55,005 bases of DNA from Fusobacterium mortiferum (GCF_016900045.1 NZ_JACSNP010000011.1:1-55005), one strand, 5' to 3'; shown: positions 1-13,615, numbered from the stretch's first letter. Translations and numbers: made by a program. The notes: generated by a model not told the origin, from the sequence alone.

Positions 1-10
1 TTGAATAGAA

Positions 11-44
11 AGGGAGCCTTCAACAAAAATGTTGAAAACTCCCT
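11..44 (+). terminator. Rho-independent terminator, copy 1
   Basis: AGGGAG (11-16) pairs with CTCCCT (39-44), and TTCAACA (19-25) pairs with TGTTGAA (30-36). The T-rich stretch on the plus strand begins some 15 bases later (52-68), so it more likely ends a rightward transcript from outside the window than the leftward operon at 141-3151. It is 31/34 identical to the hairpin at 96-129. Confidence 0.6.
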
Positions 45-81
45 CTATTTGGCTATTTTTATTTTTTGTAAAAACTCATAG

Positions 82-93
82 CTGAGTAGTTAC
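82..93 (+). repeat. 12-mer shared with the far end of the window
   Basis: CTGAGTAGTTAC lies between the two left-hand hairpins. Its exact reverse complement occurs at 54929-54940, again directly next to a GGGAG/CTCCC hairpin. A 12-mer match alone is expected by chance in 55 kb; the shared context is what makes it worth marking. Confidence 0.35.
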
Positions 94-95
94 GA

Positions 96-130
96 AGGGA
101 GTCTTCAAGAAAAATATTGAAAACTCCCTT
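96..130 (+). terminator. Rho-independent terminator, copy 2
   Basis: AAGGGAG (95-101) pairs with CTCCCTT (124-130), with an inner TTCAA/TTGAA stem (104-108 / 117-121), followed by TTTATTTTG on the plus strand. It differs from copy 1 at three positions only. It lies 11 bases past the stop codon of the leftward alarmone-synthetase gene and may separate convergent transcripts. Confidence 0.65.
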
Positions 131-140
131 TATTTTGTTT

Positions 141-914
141 CTATTTAAATTTTGTATCTAGCTCTCTTTCATCACTGCTTTCACTAGGTTTTAGAGTAAA
201 ATGAGATTTCATGTTTTTTATAAATGTTCCCATCTCATCAGCACTTCCTACAATTCTATTAAATATTCCCAAATACTCAGTAATAATAGGATTGTCAATA
301 TCATATGGGTATCTCATCAAATGATCAATTTCACTCCATGCTTCTTCAAATACAGTTCTTACCTGAATTTCAACCAGAATTTCATCTTTTTTCGTAACAG
401 GAATACCAATTAGGTAATGAACAGAACGATAACCATGATCTCTTACGATTATCTCACAATTCATTTCAGAGATACTTTCTTGAAGTTGAATAACATTATA
501 ATCTCCACGTCTAATATTTATTTGAGGAGTTTCTCTTATCTCCCAAAGTCCCATTATTTCATGATGAATGTCTTTCCAATCATCTTTAAAAAGATGTAAG
601 ACTCTTATTCCAATAAGGTCGGTTACAATTTCTTTATATGTTTCTAGAGATATCCCTCTATCAACATACTTCCTTCCTTTTCTAATAATTTTTTCTATAA
701 GATGTTTTGGTTTTTTTACTCTTCTTCTGACAGAGTGAACACTAGGAACATCAATTAATTTAGAAACAATATATTCCGCTTCTTTTTCAAGTTGTGGAAC
801 AAAAGTAATATAATTATCATATATTTTTACAAGTTCATCCCATACAAGTCCTGTTGAAGCAAAATGTTCTTCATCAATTGAAAATTCTTTAAAAAATTGT
901 TCTTTATCTAACAT
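141..914 (-). CDS. Small alarmone synthetase (RelA/SpoT synthetase domain)
   Basis: A cytosolic enzyme of 257 residues, expected to transfer pyrophosphate from ATP to GTP or GDP and make (p)ppGpp. The fold signatures are visible: a basic segment SVRRRVKKPKHLIEKI (61-76), TDLIGIRV (98-105) with the metal-binding Asp99, HGYRSVHY (160-167) and VEIQVRT (181-187) with the catalytic Glu182. There is no HD hydrolase, TGS or ACT domain, so it is a single-domain synthetase. It is the last gene of a leftward three-gene operon and begins 21 bases after the upstream gene; the GGGGTGAG ribosome site supports the ATG. Whether it is housekeeping or a toxSAS-like toxin that modifies tRNA or makes ppApp cannot be told from sequence. 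No antitoxin is obvious. Confidence 0.85.
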   Translation of the reverse strand: MLDKEQFFKEFSIDEEHFASTGLVWDELVKIYDNYITFVPQLEKEAEYIVSKLIDVPSVHSVRRRVKKPKHLIEKIIRKGRKYVDRGISLETYKEIVTDLIGIRVLHLFKDDWKDIHHEIMGLWEIRETPQINIRRGDYNVIQLQESISEMNCEIIVRDHGYRSVHYLIGIPVTKKDEILVEIQVRTVFEEAWSEIDHLMRYPYDIDNPIITEYLGIFNRIVGSADEMGTFIKNMKSHFTLKPSESSDERELDTKFK

Positions 915-935
915 GATAAATTAACTCACCCCTTA

Positions 936-2351
936 TTAAAATTGCTTTTCAATCAATTCTAATTTTATATCAACTATTTTTCTGTATCCAGAAACAATAT
1001 TTTTTTCTAAATTAACTTCTTTTTCAGTTAAAGCAGATTTAACAAAAGCAATCTCTTTTAAATCATAATTAAAGCCACGGATATTTAAATTATGAATTTT
1101 TGTAAAAGCAATACTATCTCCAATATTAACATTAAATCTGTTTTCTATTCTAAAATTTATCCAGCTATTTAAGACAGTATTATTATTTAGGTAGTTATGT
1201 AGAAGATGTAGTGTGTAAAACTGTAATGAACTTTCAGAAAAATTTTTAATTTTTGTAATATTCATTAACTTCATACTCTCTTCATACTTATTTATACTTT
1301 CTATAATCATATTAAATTTATGAGCTTGGATAGGATTTTCAAATTGAATATCCCCAAATAAGTCTTTTATTTGGAAGGTAATTTTTTCTCCAGAGAAAAT
1401 AGATTTTAATATTTCGGCAACAGCATGCACTCTACTATTTTTTAGCTTACTAAAAATTTCATAAGTGAAATAGTCTTCATGCTTTCTTATAGTATTTCCA
1501 TCAAATAACGCAATACTAAGGGCGATTTTAAACTCACGAGTTTTAAACTCAATTAGTTTAAATTTATTATATCCAAGTATTCTAATATTAACATTTGAAA
1601 GAATAGTATCTCCTATATGGATATTAGAGCTATTTAAACTTATATTTTCTATACTCTCTTCACGATAAGGAAGGTTGCTATCCTTAATAGGAAAATCTTT
1701 TAATTTCAAAGATGTATATGAAATTTCAAGACCAGTTTCTATACCATTTTCAAAAGGAATTTCAATATTTTTTGGAGAATAGCTCTCTACTATTTCTAGA
1801 ACATTTTCTTCTTGAATATTTTCGTTAATATTTTGAGAGCTAGGAATTTCAGCTAGACTTTCATCTACATTATTATCAGTTATCACACTATTTATATTAA
1901 GAATTTCTATATTATTTTCTATATTTTCTATTAATTCAATCTCATTTGTTTCAGAACTTTCTAATTCTGTGATATTTTCAGGGTTATTTTCAAAATTATC
2001 ACTTATTGTGTAGTTATCTACATTTTCAAGAGCAGTACTCTCAGTGAGTTGAATACTATCTTCATTTAAAATTTCATTTTCTTTTAAAGTTTCAGAGTTC
2101 AAAACTTCATTATTTATTTCACGGCACTCTTTATTTTCTGATGATGTAATATCTTCTTCATTAGTTAAAATATTATCCTCTATTATATTTTTTATACTCT
2201 CTTCTATTTCTTCAGGCGTATTCTCAATTTTAGAGGAGTGAATCTCTTCAGTATCAATTAGATTAATCTCTAATTTTTGTGAGTCTATAATACCCTTTTC
2301 AGTTTCGACAGTGGTAGTATTGTTGGGATTATCTTCCTCTGATACTACCAC
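936..2351 (-). CDS. Unrecognised acidic protein of the SIR2/RelA operon
   Basis: 471 residues that I do not recognise. About residues 1-210 are strongly acidic and Asn/Ser/Ile-rich (many Glu and Asn) with no Cys or Trp, so probably disordered. From about 215 to the end the composition becomes that of a folded domain of mixed strands and helices (for example NIRILGYNKFKLIEFK near 254). No signal peptide or membrane segment is seen. The start is a GTG that overlaps the end of the SIR2-like gene by 7 bases, which implies translational coupling; no good ribosome site precedes it, so a later start inside the acidic region is possible. Position between a SIR2-like gene and an alarmone synthetase suggests a linker or sensor role, which is inference. 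Confidence 0.7.
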   Translation of the reverse strand: MVVSEEDNPNNTTTVETEKGIIDSQKLEINLIDTEEIHSSKIENTPEEIEESIKNIIEDNILTNEEDITSSENKECREINNEVLNSETLKENEILNEDSIQLTESTALENVDNYTISDNFENNPENITELESSETNEIELIENIENNIEILNINSVITDNNVDESLAEIPSSQNINENIQEENVLEIVESYSPKNIEIPFENGIETGLEISYTSLKLKDFPIKDSNLPYREESIENISLNSSNIHIGDTILSNVNIRILGYNKFKLIEFKTREFKIALSIALFDGNTIRKHEDYFTYEIFSKLKNSRVHAVAEILKSIFSGEKITFQIKDLFGDIQFENPIQAHKFNMIIESINKYEESMKLMNITKIKNFSESSLQFYTLHLLHNYLNNNTVLNSWINFRIENRFNVNIGDSIAFTKIHNLNIRGFNYDLKEIAFVKSALTEKEVNLEKNIVSGYRKIVDIKLELIEKQF

Positions 2352-3151
2352 ACAAACTTTTTTTCAGGAAGTATTGTACTCTCTCTTTCTAAAGTTTCTT
2401 TGAAGTAGTTAATAAATTCAATTGTATCTGAGGTAATAAGTTTTATATTGTATTTACTAATGAAATCAGCAGCTTTACTACTTATTATAGTTGTAGAAGC
2501 AACCATATATATACCTTGTAGCTCTTTCATAGGTGATAGAATAAAGTCAAGAGTATTTATCAAATCGGAATCTTCTAAATTAATTCCAAGAAAGAGTGTA
2601 GGTCTAGTCTTGAACTCTTCTCTTACTCTTTTAAAGAAAATATTATAAAACTCTAAAGTTTTTAATTTTCTGATATCTTGGCTTGATATAAAAACTGTTC
2701 CAGCATTTGTTATATCTCCAAAGAATTTATAATAGTTAATTTTATTATTTATTTTATCTTTTACTTCATAAGGAGTTATTTTATTTACCATATTAGAAAA
2801 ATTATTTTCTATTATAGTATCAAAGTTTAGTGTGAAAATAGTATCAAAATATTTTGAATTAATAATATTATTATAGGCATCCAAATTAGTATTGTATCTA
2901 TATTCAAAATTTTCTTTAATTTGTTTAATCAAATTTTTCTTGGTATCAATAACAGCATCAAGATATGCTTGAACTATATCAGAAAAAGAATTAAGATCTT
3001 TTATATAGCCTTTAGCTGAGCTTTTTATCTCAGAAAGAATAGCTTCAGAGATATCAGTTCTAGTTGGATAACCAGAAATTTTGTTTAAAAAATCTCCAAC
3101 AAAGAGATTAAATTTTTGCTCTTTTTCAAATTTATCAAAAAAGCTCTTCAT
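2345..3151 (-). CDS. SIR2-like domain protein, probably degenerate
   Basis: 268 residues. The SIR2-like pattern is recognisable: an N-terminal NAD-loop position reading LFVGDFLNKISGYPTR (16-31), the FTLNFDTIIE segment (106-115) that matches the usual TTNYDxxLE, and LFLGINLEDSDL (187-198) matching the FxGxxxxDxDL motif near the domain end. Two positions differ from active NAD-hydrolysing members: the glycine-rich GAGxS loop is reduced to VGDF, and the usual K-L-H-G catalytic His motif reads YKFFGDI (141-147), with Phe in place of His. The protein may bind but not cleave NAD. It is the first gene of the leftward operon with ATG preceded by AGGTGA, and overlaps the next gene by 7 bases. Confidence 0.75.
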   Translation of the reverse strand: MKSFFDKFEKEQKFNLFVGDFLNKISGYPTRTDISEAILSEIKSSAKGYIKDLNSFSDIVQAYLDAVIDTKKNLIKQIKENFEYRYNTNLDAYNNIINSKYFDTIFTLNFDTIIENNFSNMVNKITPYEVKDKINNKINYYKFFGDITNAGTVFISSQDIRKLKTLEFYNIFFKRVREEFKTRPTLFLGINLEDSDLINTLDFILSPMKELQGIYMVASTTIISSKAADFISKYNIKLITSDTIEFINYFKETLERESTILPEKKFVW

Positions 3152-4751: not shown

Positions 4752-5504
4752 ATGATTGAATTTCAAAAACTTTCTGATTTTTTCTTTCCTTTTATAGAGA
4801 GTGATATCAGATATATAGGAGATTTTTATTATGATTTACACATACACACAACTGCTTCAGATAGCTTTATTAAGCCGGAGTTTTTAAAAAGTTTTGTAGA
4901 AGACAAGAGATACCTTTTATCAGTAACAGACCATAATGATATCAGGGGAGCTATAAAATTAAATGAGATGGGAATAAGAAATGTTCCCGGAATAGAAGTT
5001 GGTTGTGAAGATGGATTTGAAATGTTAGTATATTTTAAAAAGATGCAAGATTTGGAAGAGTTTTACAGAAAAGAGGTTGAGCCATATAGAAATCAAAAAA
5101 GAATGGCAAAAACTTATAGGGGAATATATGAATATCTGGATGTTTTAAATCAATGGGAGTGTCATAAATCTATTCCACATATATATGGTGTTGTTCAAAA
5201 AAATTTTATAAATAATAAAAATTATATATATGATATAATACCAAAAGTTGATTCGTTAGAAACACACAATCATGCTTTACCTATGGTTAGAAATTTATTA
5301 GCTGGAGAGTTAAGGGAAAAATATAATTTAACAGCTACTTTTGGAAGTGATGCTCATATATTGAGAGAGGTAGTATCTTTTTACAAGTATTCCAATTTAG
5401 ATCTAAGTAAAAGAGAAAAAGTTGTTAATTATTTATATAAAATAGGGAGTTTAAGTGGTATAGGACATAAGCATTTGATGTATATGCTTAAAAGTTTAAC
5501 ATAG
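4752..5504 (+). CDS. PHP-domain metal-dependent phosphoesterase-like protein
   Basis: 250 residues with the PHP (polymerase and histidinol phosphatase) metal-site motifs: DLHIHTTASD with His30 and His32, TDHND near 69-73, and FGSDAH near 199-204. These give a multinuclear metal site typical of phosphoesterases acting on small phosphate esters or nucleotides; the substrate is not known. No signal peptide. It follows cls by 21 bases with ribosome site GAGAGTGAG, so it is likely co-transcribed with it, but there is no sequence reason to tie it to lipid metabolism. I am sure of the family, not of the function. Confidence 0.8.
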   Translation: MIEFQKLSDFFFPFIESDIRYIGDFYYDLHIHTTASDSFIKPEFLKSFVEDKRYLLSVTDHNDIRGAIKLNEMGIRNVPGIEVGCEDGFEMLVYFKKMQDLEEFYRKEVEPYRNQKRMAKTYRGIYEYLDVLNQWECHKSIPHIYGVVQKNFINNKNYIYDIIPKVDSLETHNHALPMVRNLLAGELREKYNLTATFGSDAHILREVVSFYKYSNLDLSKREKVVNYLYKIGSLSGIGHKHLMYMLKSLT

Positions 5505-5556: not shown

Positions 5557-5633
5557 GACCCCGTAGCTCAATTGGATAGAGCAATTCCCTCCTAAGGAAT
5601 AGGTTGTGTGTTCAAACCACATCGGGGTCGCCA
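5557..5633 (+). tRNA. tRNA-Arg (anticodon CCT)
   Basis: A full cloverleaf can be drawn: acceptor GACCCCG (5557-5563) with CGGGGTC (5623-5629), D stem GCTC/GAGC, anticodon stem ATTCC/GGAAT with loop CTCCTAA, T stem GTGTG/CACAT (one G-T pair) with loop TTCAAAC, discriminator G and encoded CCA (5631-5633). The anticodon CCT (5591-5593) reads AGG arginine codons. Confidence 0.97.
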
Positions 5634-5656
5634 TTTTTTTTATAGGTGATATTTTT

Positions 5657-5953
5657 ATGATAAAAAAGTTGATTTTGATATCAGTACTATCTTTTTTTAT
5701 CAGTGCTTGTAGCTCATATACTCCAGATGGTGTAAATAATCAATATTTAAAATTATCAAAAAGTTTAGATAATCTTATGAGTGAAGAGATTAAAGAAAAA
5801 AAAAGAGCTAACTTAGAAAGAAAATTTGAAAATTTTTCTAGAGGAATGATTAAATACAAAGAAAATAATCAAGGATTAGATACTCAATATTTAGATTATT
5901 ATATAAAGGAAACTTCAATAAAAATTCAATATTTAAAAGACTTAAAAGATTAA
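5657..5953 (+). CDS. Small lipoprotein of unknown function
   Basis: 98 residues beginning MIKKLILISVLSFFISACSS: a short basic n-region, hydrophobic stretch and an SAC lipobox, so it should be lipidated at the first Cys and anchored in a membrane. The rest is Lys/Glu-rich and probably helical. I do not recognise a family. The start at 5657 follows AGGTGAT with good spacing; in-frame codons further upstream lie inside the tRNA. Only 23 bases separate it from the tRNA CCA end and no terminator lies between, so it is probably transcribed with the tRNA and freed by 3' processing. Confidence 0.75.
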   Translation: MIKKLILISVLSFFISACSSYTPDGVNNQYLKLSKSLDNLMSEEIKEKKRANLERKFENFSRGMIKYKENNQGLDTQYLDYYIKETSIKIQYLKDLKD

Positions 5954-12096: not shown

Positions 12097-12109
12097 TAAG
12101 TTTTATATT

Positions 12110-13615
12110 TTAATTACTTTTTCTTATTCTTTTGTATAATCCAGTTATATGTAACATACTTTGAATTAATCTTTCATCAGTAGCATTTTTCCACATTCTC
12201 CAACACCAGTTACCCCCAATAGTAGAAGGTACATTCATCCTAGCTTCATCTCCTAATCCTAAATAATCTTGCATCTGAATGATAACAATATTACTTGTAA
12301 CAGCCATTGTCCTAGAGATCATTTTCCAAACAGTTTCCTTATCATTAGAAGTATAAATATCTAAATAACTTCTCATATATTCGATATCATTACTATTAGC
12401 AGAAAGTATCCATCCTAAAGCAGTATTATTATCATGAGTTCCAATATACGCTACACTATTTTGAGTATAATTGTGTGGTAAGTAATCTCCCCCTTCTCTA
12501 GAATCAAAAGCAAATTGCATAAGTTTCATTCCTGGATATCCGGTTTCTTTTAAAAGTTGTATAACATCTTCTGTAAGATAACCAAGATCTTCAGCTATTA
12601 AATTTAGCTCTCCAAGCTCTTCCTTTATTCTATTGAATAATTTTATTCCTGGTCCTTTCTGCCATTTTCCATTTAAAGCAGTAGTTTCATTAGCAGGAAT
12701 AGAATAATAGCTTTCAAATCCTCTAAAGTGATCTATTCTTACAATATCATAAAGAGTTGTAGCACTTTTTAGCCGATCTATCCACCAATTATATTTGGTC
12801 TTTTCCATATATTCCCAATTATATAGGGGATTTCCCCATAATTGACCAATTGCAGAGAAAGCATCTGGAGGACATCCAGCTACAGATATCATATTAAGTT
12901 GTTCATCTAGTTGAAAATATTCTGGATTTTTCCATACCTCTACACTATCATAAGCTACGTATATAGGAATATCTCCTATAATTTTTATTCCGTTTTTATT
13001 TGCATAATTTTTCAGATTTCTCCATTGAGTATAAAATTTATATTGTAAAAATTTCCAAAACTCAATTTTTTCTCTATTATTTTTTATAAAACATTTTAGG
13101 GTTTCAGGGTCTTTTTTTCTAAATTTTTCACTCCATTTTTCCCAAGAATAGTCATTATTAGCTTTTTTTATAGCCATAAAAAGAGCATAATCTTCTAACC
13201 AATTTTTTTCTTGTTCTAAAAATTTTATATATCCATCTTCTTTTAGGTTAAATCTTGTAAAAGCTTTTTCTAAAATATGGTATCTCAAATTATACATTAA
13301 TTCATAGTCTATTAGTGTCGGATTATCACCCCAATTAAGAGTTTGGTACTCCTCTTGTTTTAAAAGTCCTTCATAAGCAAGAATATCTAAATCTATAAAA
13401 TAAGGGTTTCCAGCATTTATAGAAAATGATTGATAAGGAGAATCTCCATAACTTGTTTGTCCTAATGGTAATATTTGCCAGTAAGTTTGTCCCGAATATT
13501 TTAAAAAATCTACAAACTTATAAGCTTCCTCTCCAAAAGTTCCAATTCCATAATTTGATGGTAGAGAAGATACATGCAATAATATACCACTACCTCTTGA
13601 TGTAATTTTTTTCAT
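12110..13615 (-). CDS. malQ: 4-alpha-glucanotransferase (amylomaltase)
   Basis: 501 residues, GH77 length. It transfers glucan segments between maltodextrins and releases glucose, in the cytoplasm. Family motifs: GSGILLHVSSLPS near the N terminus, the nucleophile Asp in VRIDHFRGFE, the acid/base Glu in LIAEDLGYL, and the transition-state Asp in YIGTHDNNT; the C terminal NVPSTIGGNWCWR is also typical. Third gene of the leftward PTS-phosphatase-malQ operon, 12 bases after the preceding gene, with AAAGGAGTT before the ATG. It needs unphosphorylated glucans, which conflicts with PTS uptake unless the preceding phosphatase acts first. Confidence 0.95.
   Translation of the reverse strand: MKKITSRGSGILLHVSSLPSNYGIGTFGEEAYKFVDFLKYSGQTYWQILPLGQTSYGDSPYQSFSINAGNPYFIDLDILAYEGLLKQEEYQTLNWGDNPTLIDYELMYNLRYHILEKAFTRFNLKEDGYIKFLEQEKNWLEDYALFMAIKKANNDYSWEKWSEKFRKKDPETLKCFIKNNREKIEFWKFLQYKFYTQWRNLKNYANKNGIKIIGDIPIYVAYDSVEVWKNPEYFQLDEQLNMISVAGCPPDAFSAIGQLWGNPLYNWEYMEKTKYNWWIDRLKSATTLYDIVRIDHFRGFESYYSIPANETTALNGKWQKGPGIKLFNRIKEELGELNLIAEDLGYLTEDVIQLLKETGYPGMKLMQFAFDSREGGDYLPHNYTQNSVAYIGTHDNNTALGWILSANSNDIEYMRSYLDIYTSNDKETVWKMISRTMAVTSNIVIIQMQDYLGLGDEARMNVPSTIGGNWCWRMWKNATDERLIQSMLHITGLYKRIRKSN

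What the first reader, a model, noticed from the sequence alone, without database searches (positions are those of the whole stretch)
141..3151. SIR2-like / acidic protein / alarmone synthetase operon
Three leftward genes are tightly packed (7-base overlap, then 21 bases): a SIR2-like protein, an unknown protein with a long acidic, probably disordered head, and a single-domain RelA/SpoT synthetase. SIR2-like proteins and nucleotide-signal enzymes are both common in abortive-infection and stress systems, but I know of no described system with this trio. Seen: gene order and motifs. Inferred: that they work together.
Basis: partly seen in the sequence, partly recalled or inferred. Interest (0 to 1): 0.7.

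Follow-up and report, generated by a model that had tools for sequence, protein, structure and literature searches.

The report
Frameshifted pseudo-SIR2 gene beside alarmone synthetase
What looked like three genes is most likely two: a stress-nucleotide synthetase and one long protein whose gene is split on purpose, so that ribosomes must slip back one letter at a conserved AAAAAAG site to finish it, an arrangement kept across the Fusobacterium family and, as far as I could find, not described before.

Summary
The three reading frames are real and at the stated coordinates. The reading changes. (1) The "SIR2-like" and "acidic" genes are very probably one gene expressed by programmed -1 ribosomal frameshifting. 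In all 31 split genomes examined, plus F. vincentii, the second ORF lies in the -1 frame. 22 carry A_AAA_AAG at exactly the same place before the stop; the background is 1 per 2,000 codons. In the window's genus a covarying stem follows 5-7 nt downstream. In three genomes the first possible start codon lies inside the conserved C-terminal domain. In other genera the gene is fused in frame. (2) The SIR2 domain is a ThsA/DSR2-type fold without the catalytic histidine, so probably not an NADase. (3) The C-terminal domain folds confidently (pLDDT 91) but matches no PDB or BFVD structure. (4) The synthetase keeps its motifs and belongs to a type listed earlier for Fusobacteria as fpRel. The module is confined to Fusobacteriaceae, linked in 37 of 47 genomes holding both parts, and sits among housekeeping genes (cls, lon). 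An abortive-infection role is not supported. I propose a core stress module in which frameshifting sets the ratio of short and long pseudo-SIR2 proteins serving the synthetase; that last step is inference.

The parts
2345..3151 (-). ORF 1: pseudo-SIR2 domain, zero-frame (short) product, 268 aa
   Evidence: SIR2_2 E 6e-17; ThsA E 9.5e-11; DSR2/ThsA fold; catalytic His replaced by Phe144
2357..2363 (-). A_AAA_AAG slippery heptamer, zero-frame AAA AAG, three codons before the TAG stop
   Evidence: same place in 22 of 31 split genomes; background 64 in 128,572 codons
2311..2351 (-). Stem-loop starting 5 nt after the heptamer: GUGGUAGUAU paired with AUACUACCAC, containing the zero-frame stop
   Evidence: -16.3 kcal/mol, z -3.6; covariation across 10 genomes of the genus
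936..2363 (-). -1 frame open region: the part of the long product made after the shift (its only nearby start-like codon is GTG at 2351)
   Evidence: always -1 frame; no Shine-Dalgarno; start codons absent in relatives
1767..2351 (-). Acidic, low-complexity linker (about residues 1-195 of ORF 2)
   Evidence: Residues 1-205: 55 D/E, 8 K/R; linker length varies from about 20 to about 600 aa in relatives
939..1766 (-). C-terminal domain, beta-rich, no known fold found
   Evidence: Alignment A3; AlphaFold2 pLDDT 91.0, pTM 0.86; no PDB or BFVD match at E <= 0.001
141..914 (-). Single-domain alarmone synthetase (fpRel-type small alarmone synthetase), 257 aa
   Evidence: best solved relatives 6fgj/6ewz E 4e-16; family alignment A1

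Best explanation
The locus is a two-gene, family-wide operon. Gene 1 encodes pseudo-SIR2 - acidic linker - C-terminal domain. In most genera its reading frame is broken after the SIR2 domain. Most ribosomes would stop there and make the short pseudo-SIR2 protein. A fraction would slip back one base on A_AAA_AAG, helped in the window's genus by a stem-loop, and make the long protein. The slip is inferred from sequence and not measured. Gene 2 is a (p)ppGpp synthetase. The pseudo-SIR2 domain has lost the residue needed for NAD hydrolysis and most likely serves as a nucleotide-binding or self-assembling scaffold. The long form would carry the acidic linker and C-terminal domain as a regulator or anchor of the synthetase, in a housekeeping stress response rather than phage defence. 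Shown by sequence: frame relation, heptamer, stem, missing His, conserved linkage. Inferred: the frameshift itself, the ratio of products, and any contact with the synthetase. The confidence given is for the frameshift reading; for the partnership with the synthetase it is about 0.5.
For: Frame: in 31 of 31 split genomes, and in F. vincentii, ORF 2 is in the -1 frame and open past the SIR2 stop. Slippery site: 22 have A_AAA_AAG at exactly AAA AAG NNN NNN NNN STOP and 27 have A_AAA_AAR, against 64 in 128,572 codons and 0 of 385 other genes at that place. Some runs are only six A's followed by G (GGA AAA AAG, AGA AAA AAG), which argues for ribosomal rather than transcriptional slippage. Stem: 9 pairs, 94% of cells paired, 3 pairs changed on both sides, better than every slid register; window stem z -3.6. 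No independent start: the first ATG/GTG/TTG lies about 60, 51 and 20 codons inside the conserved C-terminal domain in G027, G017 and G005. In-frame fusions in genera g2, g5, g11, g12 and g14, with at least 3-4 changes between split and fused on the synthetase tree. The Cetobacterium sp. 2A fusion (L106) has the same junction with ten A's. Both tRNA-Lys genes found have anticodon UUU. A_AAA_AAG is among the most shift-prone sites in E. coli and stimulatory structures usually start 5-8 nt downstream (PMC4066793, PMC5009743). Linkage with the synthetase in 37 of 47 genomes; synthetase motifs kept.
Against: No protein or ribosome-profiling data. The downstream stem is significant only in g1, g4 and g6; in g2, g3, g5 and g8 it is not. 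Genera g4 and g6 and F. vincentii have the same frame relation and hairpins but no standard heptamer, so their route is unknown. Lineages fused in frame manage without a frameshift, so the short product may not be needed. The synthetase lies elsewhere in g8, g13, g14 and one g11 genome, and is missing in g12, so a tight partnership is not universal. AlphaFold gives no fixed arrangement of the two domains (pTM 0.49).
Confidence: 0.85

Rival explanations
1. Two ordinary overlapping genes with translational coupling: ribosomes ending at the SIR2 stop restart at the GTG seven bases back.
For: In five g1 genomes, G035 and G037 a GTG or ATG lies exactly 7 bases before the end of the SIR2 stop.
Against: No Shine-Dalgarno sequence at that codon; the same start is absent in most other genomes, and in G027 the first start is 863 nt further on. 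It does not explain the fixed A_AAA_AAG, the constant -1 frame or the in-frame fusions.
Confidence: 0.08
2. Transcriptional slippage on the A run, rather than ribosomal slippage, makes the mRNA for the long protein.
For: Runs of 8-10 A's in g5, g8, g13 and Cetobacterium sp. 2A are in the range reported for transcriptional slippage (PMC1088944 abstract, PMC3711429).
Against: In most genomes the run is only 6-7 A's and ends in a conserved G; a covarying RNA stem at the usual ribosomal spacing follows in g1.
Confidence: 0.1
3. A three-gene abortive-infection system: an NAD-consuming SIR2 toxin, an acidic regulator and an alarmone synthetase.
For: The SIR2 fold is nearest to ThsA and DSR2, both defence NADases. 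Some SAS enzymes are toxins (own knowledge).
Against: Catalytic His absent in all aligned members, NAD-binding glycine motif eroded; vertical inheritance across one family; housekeeping neighbours; SAS relatives in IMG/VR and elsewhere lack the SIR2 and C-terminal parts.
Confidence: 0.05
4. A decaying gene or assembly error at a homopolymer.
For: The same-species genome G021 has an in-frame TAA in the SIR2 part near a contig end; G024 has a TAG in the synthetase.
Against: Same frame relation in all 31 split genomes from 8 genera, both frames otherwise open, domains conserved.
Confidence: 0.02

Closest known systems
dnaX programmed -1 frameshift (tau/gamma) of E. coli, and IS1/IS3-type A_AAA_AAG frameshift signals
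   Same: Same heptamer in the same phase, stem-loop 5-7 nt downstream, two products sharing an N-terminus
   Different: Here the frameshift makes the longer product (in E. coli dnaX it makes the shorter); no consistent upstream Shine-Dalgarno-like element in g1; unrelated protein; some lineages fused in frame
ThsA (Thoeris) and DSR2 SIR2 NADases
   Same: SIR2_2-type fold, E 9.5e-11 to ThsA by profile, Foldseek probability 1.00 to DSR2/ThsA
   Different: Catalytic His replaced, GAGxS-type motif eroded, different C-terminal domain, no defence context
fpRel small alarmone synthetases (Atkinson et al. 2011, PMC3153485)
   Same: The paper's Table 2 lists Fusobacteria with Rel and fpRel; single synthetase domain; motifs of RelP/RelQ kept
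   Different: More distant relatives (L124-L126, L183-L186) lie in longer frames (342-550 aa) and lack the pseudo-SIR2 neighbour; the Fusobacteriaceae form is short (about 257 aa) and usually in this operon. Membership in fpRel taken from the paper's taxon table, not from a tree
toxSAS toxin-antitoxin pairs (from own knowledge)
   Same: A small alarmone synthetase gene next to another gene
   Different: The neighbour is a large multi-domain protein rather than a small antitoxin; not mobile; synthetase also found alone or unlinked

Membership tests
Programmed -1 ribosomal frameshift genes | Downstream ORF overlapping in the -1 frame | tested here: met
   31 of 31 split genomes and F. vincentii
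Programmed -1 ribosomal frameshift genes | Conserved X_XXY_YYZ slippery heptamer in the overlap | tested here: met
   A_AAA_AAG at a fixed place in 22, A_AAA_AAR in 27 of 31 genomes, window included; not met in g4, g6 and F. vincentii
Programmed -1 ribosomal frameshift genes | Stimulatory RNA structure 5-8 nt downstream | tested here: met
   Met for the window and its genus with covariation; not significant in g2, g3, g5, g8
Programmed -1 ribosomal frameshift genes | Trans-frame product detected | not testable with these tools
   Needs reporter assay or mass spectrometry
Active SIR2 NADases / deacetylases | Catalytic histidine of the HG(D) motif | tested here: not met
   Phe144 in the window; never His in 17 aligned sequences
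Active SIR2 NADases / deacetylases | SIR2 fold | tested here: met
   Foldseek E about 2e-10, probability 1.00, to DSR2 and ThsA (natural fusion L106)
Small alarmone synthetase (RelA_SpoT domain only) | Synthetase domain with conserved RxxRxK, D(x)xGxRV, GYRSxH and ExQxRTxxExxW motifs, no hydrolase domain | tested here: met
   Pfam E 8e-21, alignment to RelP, invariant columns
Small alarmone synthetase (RelA_SpoT domain only) | (p)ppGpp synthesis | not testable with these tools
   Needs enzyme assay
Abortive-infection / defence system | Patchy, mobile distribution and defence neighbours | tested here: not met
   Confined to and near-universal in Fusobacteriaceae, housekeeping neighbours, no convincing PADLOC match
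toxSAS toxin-antitoxin | Toxic synthetase neutralised by a small adjacent antitoxin | not tested
   Toxicity not testable here; no small adjacent antitoxin gene seen

The most novel reading that the evidence does not exclude
A lineage-wide regulatory complex of a new kind: pseudo-SIR2 units assemble (as ThsA and KomC-type SIR2 proteins form filaments), frameshifting doses in a minority of long subunits carrying an acidic tether and a C-terminal domain of a new fold, and these recruit or restrain an alarmone synthetase, so that a recoding event tunes (p)ppGpp signalling.
Probability: 0.2. Interest if true: 0.85.

Novelty: new variant of a known kind. Interest (0 to 1): 0.62.

Why it matters
Chromosomal, non-mobile genes with a conserved programmed frameshift are few, and I found none reported for Fusobacterium. 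If true, this gives a testable recoding site next to a stress-nucleotide synthetase in a medically relevant family, a SIR2 fold apparently used without catalysis, and a domain of no recognised fold. The recurrent switching between frameshifted and fused genes, with one junction turned into the other by extra A's, is also a natural experiment on how programmed frameshifts arise and disappear.

Tried and rejected
Three-gene abortive-infection reading: rejected for the missing catalytic His, vertical inheritance and housekeeping neighbours. Sequencing error or pseudogene: rejected, same frame relation in 31 genomes of 8 genera. Translational coupling: disfavoured, no Shine-Dalgarno and no start codon in many genomes. 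A reversed, dnaX-like arrangement in the fused genes: heptamers near the junction are common by chance in such A-rich genes; only Cetobacterium sp. 2A is suggestive. Codon-position test of the start-less linker: only a mild third-position excess (83 against 64 and 50, non-independent pairs), not conclusive. Foldseek for the C-terminal domain: no useful match in PDB or BFVD. The synthetase in viral contigs, plasmids and other phyla: relatives exist without the other parts. The pattern-based genome scan gave only 24 loci, so spread outside Fusobacteriota was sampled, not surveyed.

Full report
Observation. The three minus-strand frames are as described: 2345-3151 (268 aa, SIR2_2 E 6e-17), 936-2351 (471 aa, no family), 141-914 (257 aa, RelA_SpoT E 8e-21). 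The window is the start of contig C22 of a 2.04-Mb genome of 99.95% completeness; the genome has one other RelA/SpoT protein, in a 740-aa frame.

Spread. Among 98 Fusobacteriota genomes the SIR2-like part was found in 51, the C-terminal domain (profile A3) in 52 and close synthetase relatives in about 53, nearly all in the window's own family f1, with none of the first two outside it. By my count from those tables, 47 genomes hold both parts and in 37 they are adjacent. In genera g8, g13, g14 and one g11 genome the synthetase lies elsewhere; g12 has the long gene and no synthetase; five genomes have the synthetase alone; g7 has neither. Neighbours are a PLD-domain (cardiolipin-synthase-like) gene and a PHP-domain gene in many genera. 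In g8, g13 and g11 the gene follows lon, and in g8 and g13 it precedes type-III glutamine synthetase; in g5 an alanine racemase gene follows the synthetase. This is a core locus, not a defence island.

One gene, not two. In genera g5 (part), g11, g12, g14 and in Cetobacterium sp. 2A (L106, g2) the SIR2 part, acidic linker and C-terminal domain are one frame of 538-1143 aa. In the 31 split genomes the second frame is always -1 to the first and open past the SIR2 stop; F. vincentii agrees. Twenty-two genomes, the window included, have A_AAA_AAG in phase and exactly three codons before the stop, although the preceding codons differ between genera; five more have A_AAA_AAR nearby. In other genes of the same loci this heptamer occurs in phase 64 times in 128,572 codons and never at that place in 385 genes. 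Lysine codons there are AAA about four times as often as AAG, so the constant G is not drift. In Cetobacterium (GGA AAA AAG) and G025/G026 (AGA AAA AAG) the run is only six A's, which is short for transcriptional slippage but exactly what the ribosomal signal needs.

No independent start. The window's GTG at 2351 has no Shine-Dalgarno sequence. In G027 the -1 frame has no ATG, GTG or TTG for 863 nt after the stop. Combining, the first start lies about 60, 51 and 20 codons inside the conserved C-terminal domain in G027, G017 and G005. The domain could hardly be made there without entering from the SIR2 frame.

Stimulator. In the window the RNA after a 5-nt spacer folds into GUGGUAGUAU/AUACUACCAC, -16.3 kcal/mol, z -3.6. 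Across ten genomes of the genus the stem is kept with changes on both sides at three pairs and is far better than slid registers (94% against at most 68% paired). The shuffled control is of limited weight with ten related rows. Outside g1 the picture is mixed: strong hairpins in g4 and g6, none significant in g2, g3, g5, g8. Published work in E. coli reports A_AAA_AAG as among the most shift-prone sites and structures starting 5-8 nt downstream (PMC4066793, PMC5009743). Both tRNA-Lys genes found have anticodon UUU, and none with CUU was seen among the tRNAs read.

Evolution. Split and fused states change at least 3-4 times on a synthetase tree. The Cetobacterium sp. 2A fusion reads TTAAAAAAAAAAGCTCTCTCGGTAACTTC, the same junction as its split relatives (GGAAAAAAGCTCTTTCGGTAACTTC) with more A's: insertion in the run turned a frameshift gene into a fused one, or the reverse.

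Proteins. The SIR2 part is nearest to ThsA by sequence (E 9.5e-11) and to DSR2/ThsA by fold. In the ThsA alignment the catalytic His of MHGD falls on a non-His residue in every member (Phe144 here), and the GAGxS-type motif reads GDFLN; the Asn of TxNxD is kept in the window but not everywhere. It is therefore most likely a pseudo-enzyme, perhaps still binding a nucleotide. The C-terminal domain is predicted with pLDDT 91 and pTM 0.86 and has no match at E <= 0.001 in PDB or BFVD; cellular AlphaFold models were not available. The synthetase aligns along its length to RelP and keeps the motif residues. Atkinson et al. 2011 list Fusobacteria with Rel and fpRel (PMC3153485).

Mechanism and confidence. 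I am about 0.9 sure of a functional reading-frame change, about 0.85 that it is ribosomal, and about 0.5 that gene 1 acts on or with the synthetase. The last rests on linkage, co-inheritance and operon structure, and is weakened by the unlinked and synthetase-free genera. In other bacteria frameshifting serves assemblies needing fixed ratios (dnaX; own knowledge and PMC5009743), and ThsA and KomC-type SIR2 proteins have helical structures (titles), which suggests, but does not show, a mixed assembly here.

Open points. F. vincentii, G016, G017 (g4) and g6 have the same architecture without a standard heptamer. g4 and F. vincentii share GGTGAT upstream, TAT GCC TRA at the stop and a GAGGA hairpin just after it. 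How the frame changes there is unknown.

Literature. No report of this frameshift or operon was found in the held library. The GeneTack survey covered four Fusobacteria genomes but its main text names no such gene; its supplement was not readable here.

Noticed in passing
L187:3950-4110, L075:6760-6830, L076 (reverse strand, SIR2/linker junction): F. nucleatum-group and F. gastrosuis junction: SD-like GGTGAT, conserved TAT GCC TRA stop and a GAGGA hairpin 2-5 nt after the stop, with the -1 frame continuing and no standard slippery heptamer; possibly an undescribed type of shift signal.
   Followed up: partly
L077 and L078 (g6), SIR2/linker junction: Junction with CAA AAA CAG instead of A_AAA_AAG and an 11-bp AGAAGAAGAAG/CTTCTTCTTCT hairpin right at the stop.
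   Followed up: partly
L106 (Cetobacterium sp. 2A), about 5140-5190: In-frame fusion through a run of ten A's at the otherwise frameshifted junction; likely slippage-prone and possibly phase-variable.
   Followed up: partly
L102 (G021), 12108-12506: Same-species genome has an in-frame TAA after about codon 114 of the SIR2 gene some 50 nt before the contig end, and no synthetase found; real loss or assembly-end error unclear.
   Followed up: no
window 1-135 (minus strand): Two near-identical copies of a hairpin unit (GGGAGTTTTCAA...TTGAAGRCTCCCTT) downstream of the synthetase, terminator-like but seen by eye only.
   Followed up: no
L124, L125, L126, L183-L186: Synthetase relatives (37-54% identical) in a Clostridia MAG, Spirochaetaceae, Nitrospirae and IMG/VR contigs sit in longer frames (342-550 aa) with a C-terminal extension, without SIR2 or C-terminal-domain neighbours.
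   Followed up: partly
NZ_CP084075.1 (L187): A 2.1-Mb record filed as F. vincentii plasmid pSB055A appears, by size and content, to be the chromosome.
   Followed up: no
L105 and L123 (NZ_LT607734.1): The locus appears twice, near both ends of the 1.82-Mb F. gastrosuis contig, probably terminal redundancy of an uncircularised assembly.
   Followed up: no
window 5557-5630 (+): tRNA-Arg (CCT anticodon) overlaps the start of the mechanical ORF 5606-5953, whose real start is probably further in.
   Followed up: no
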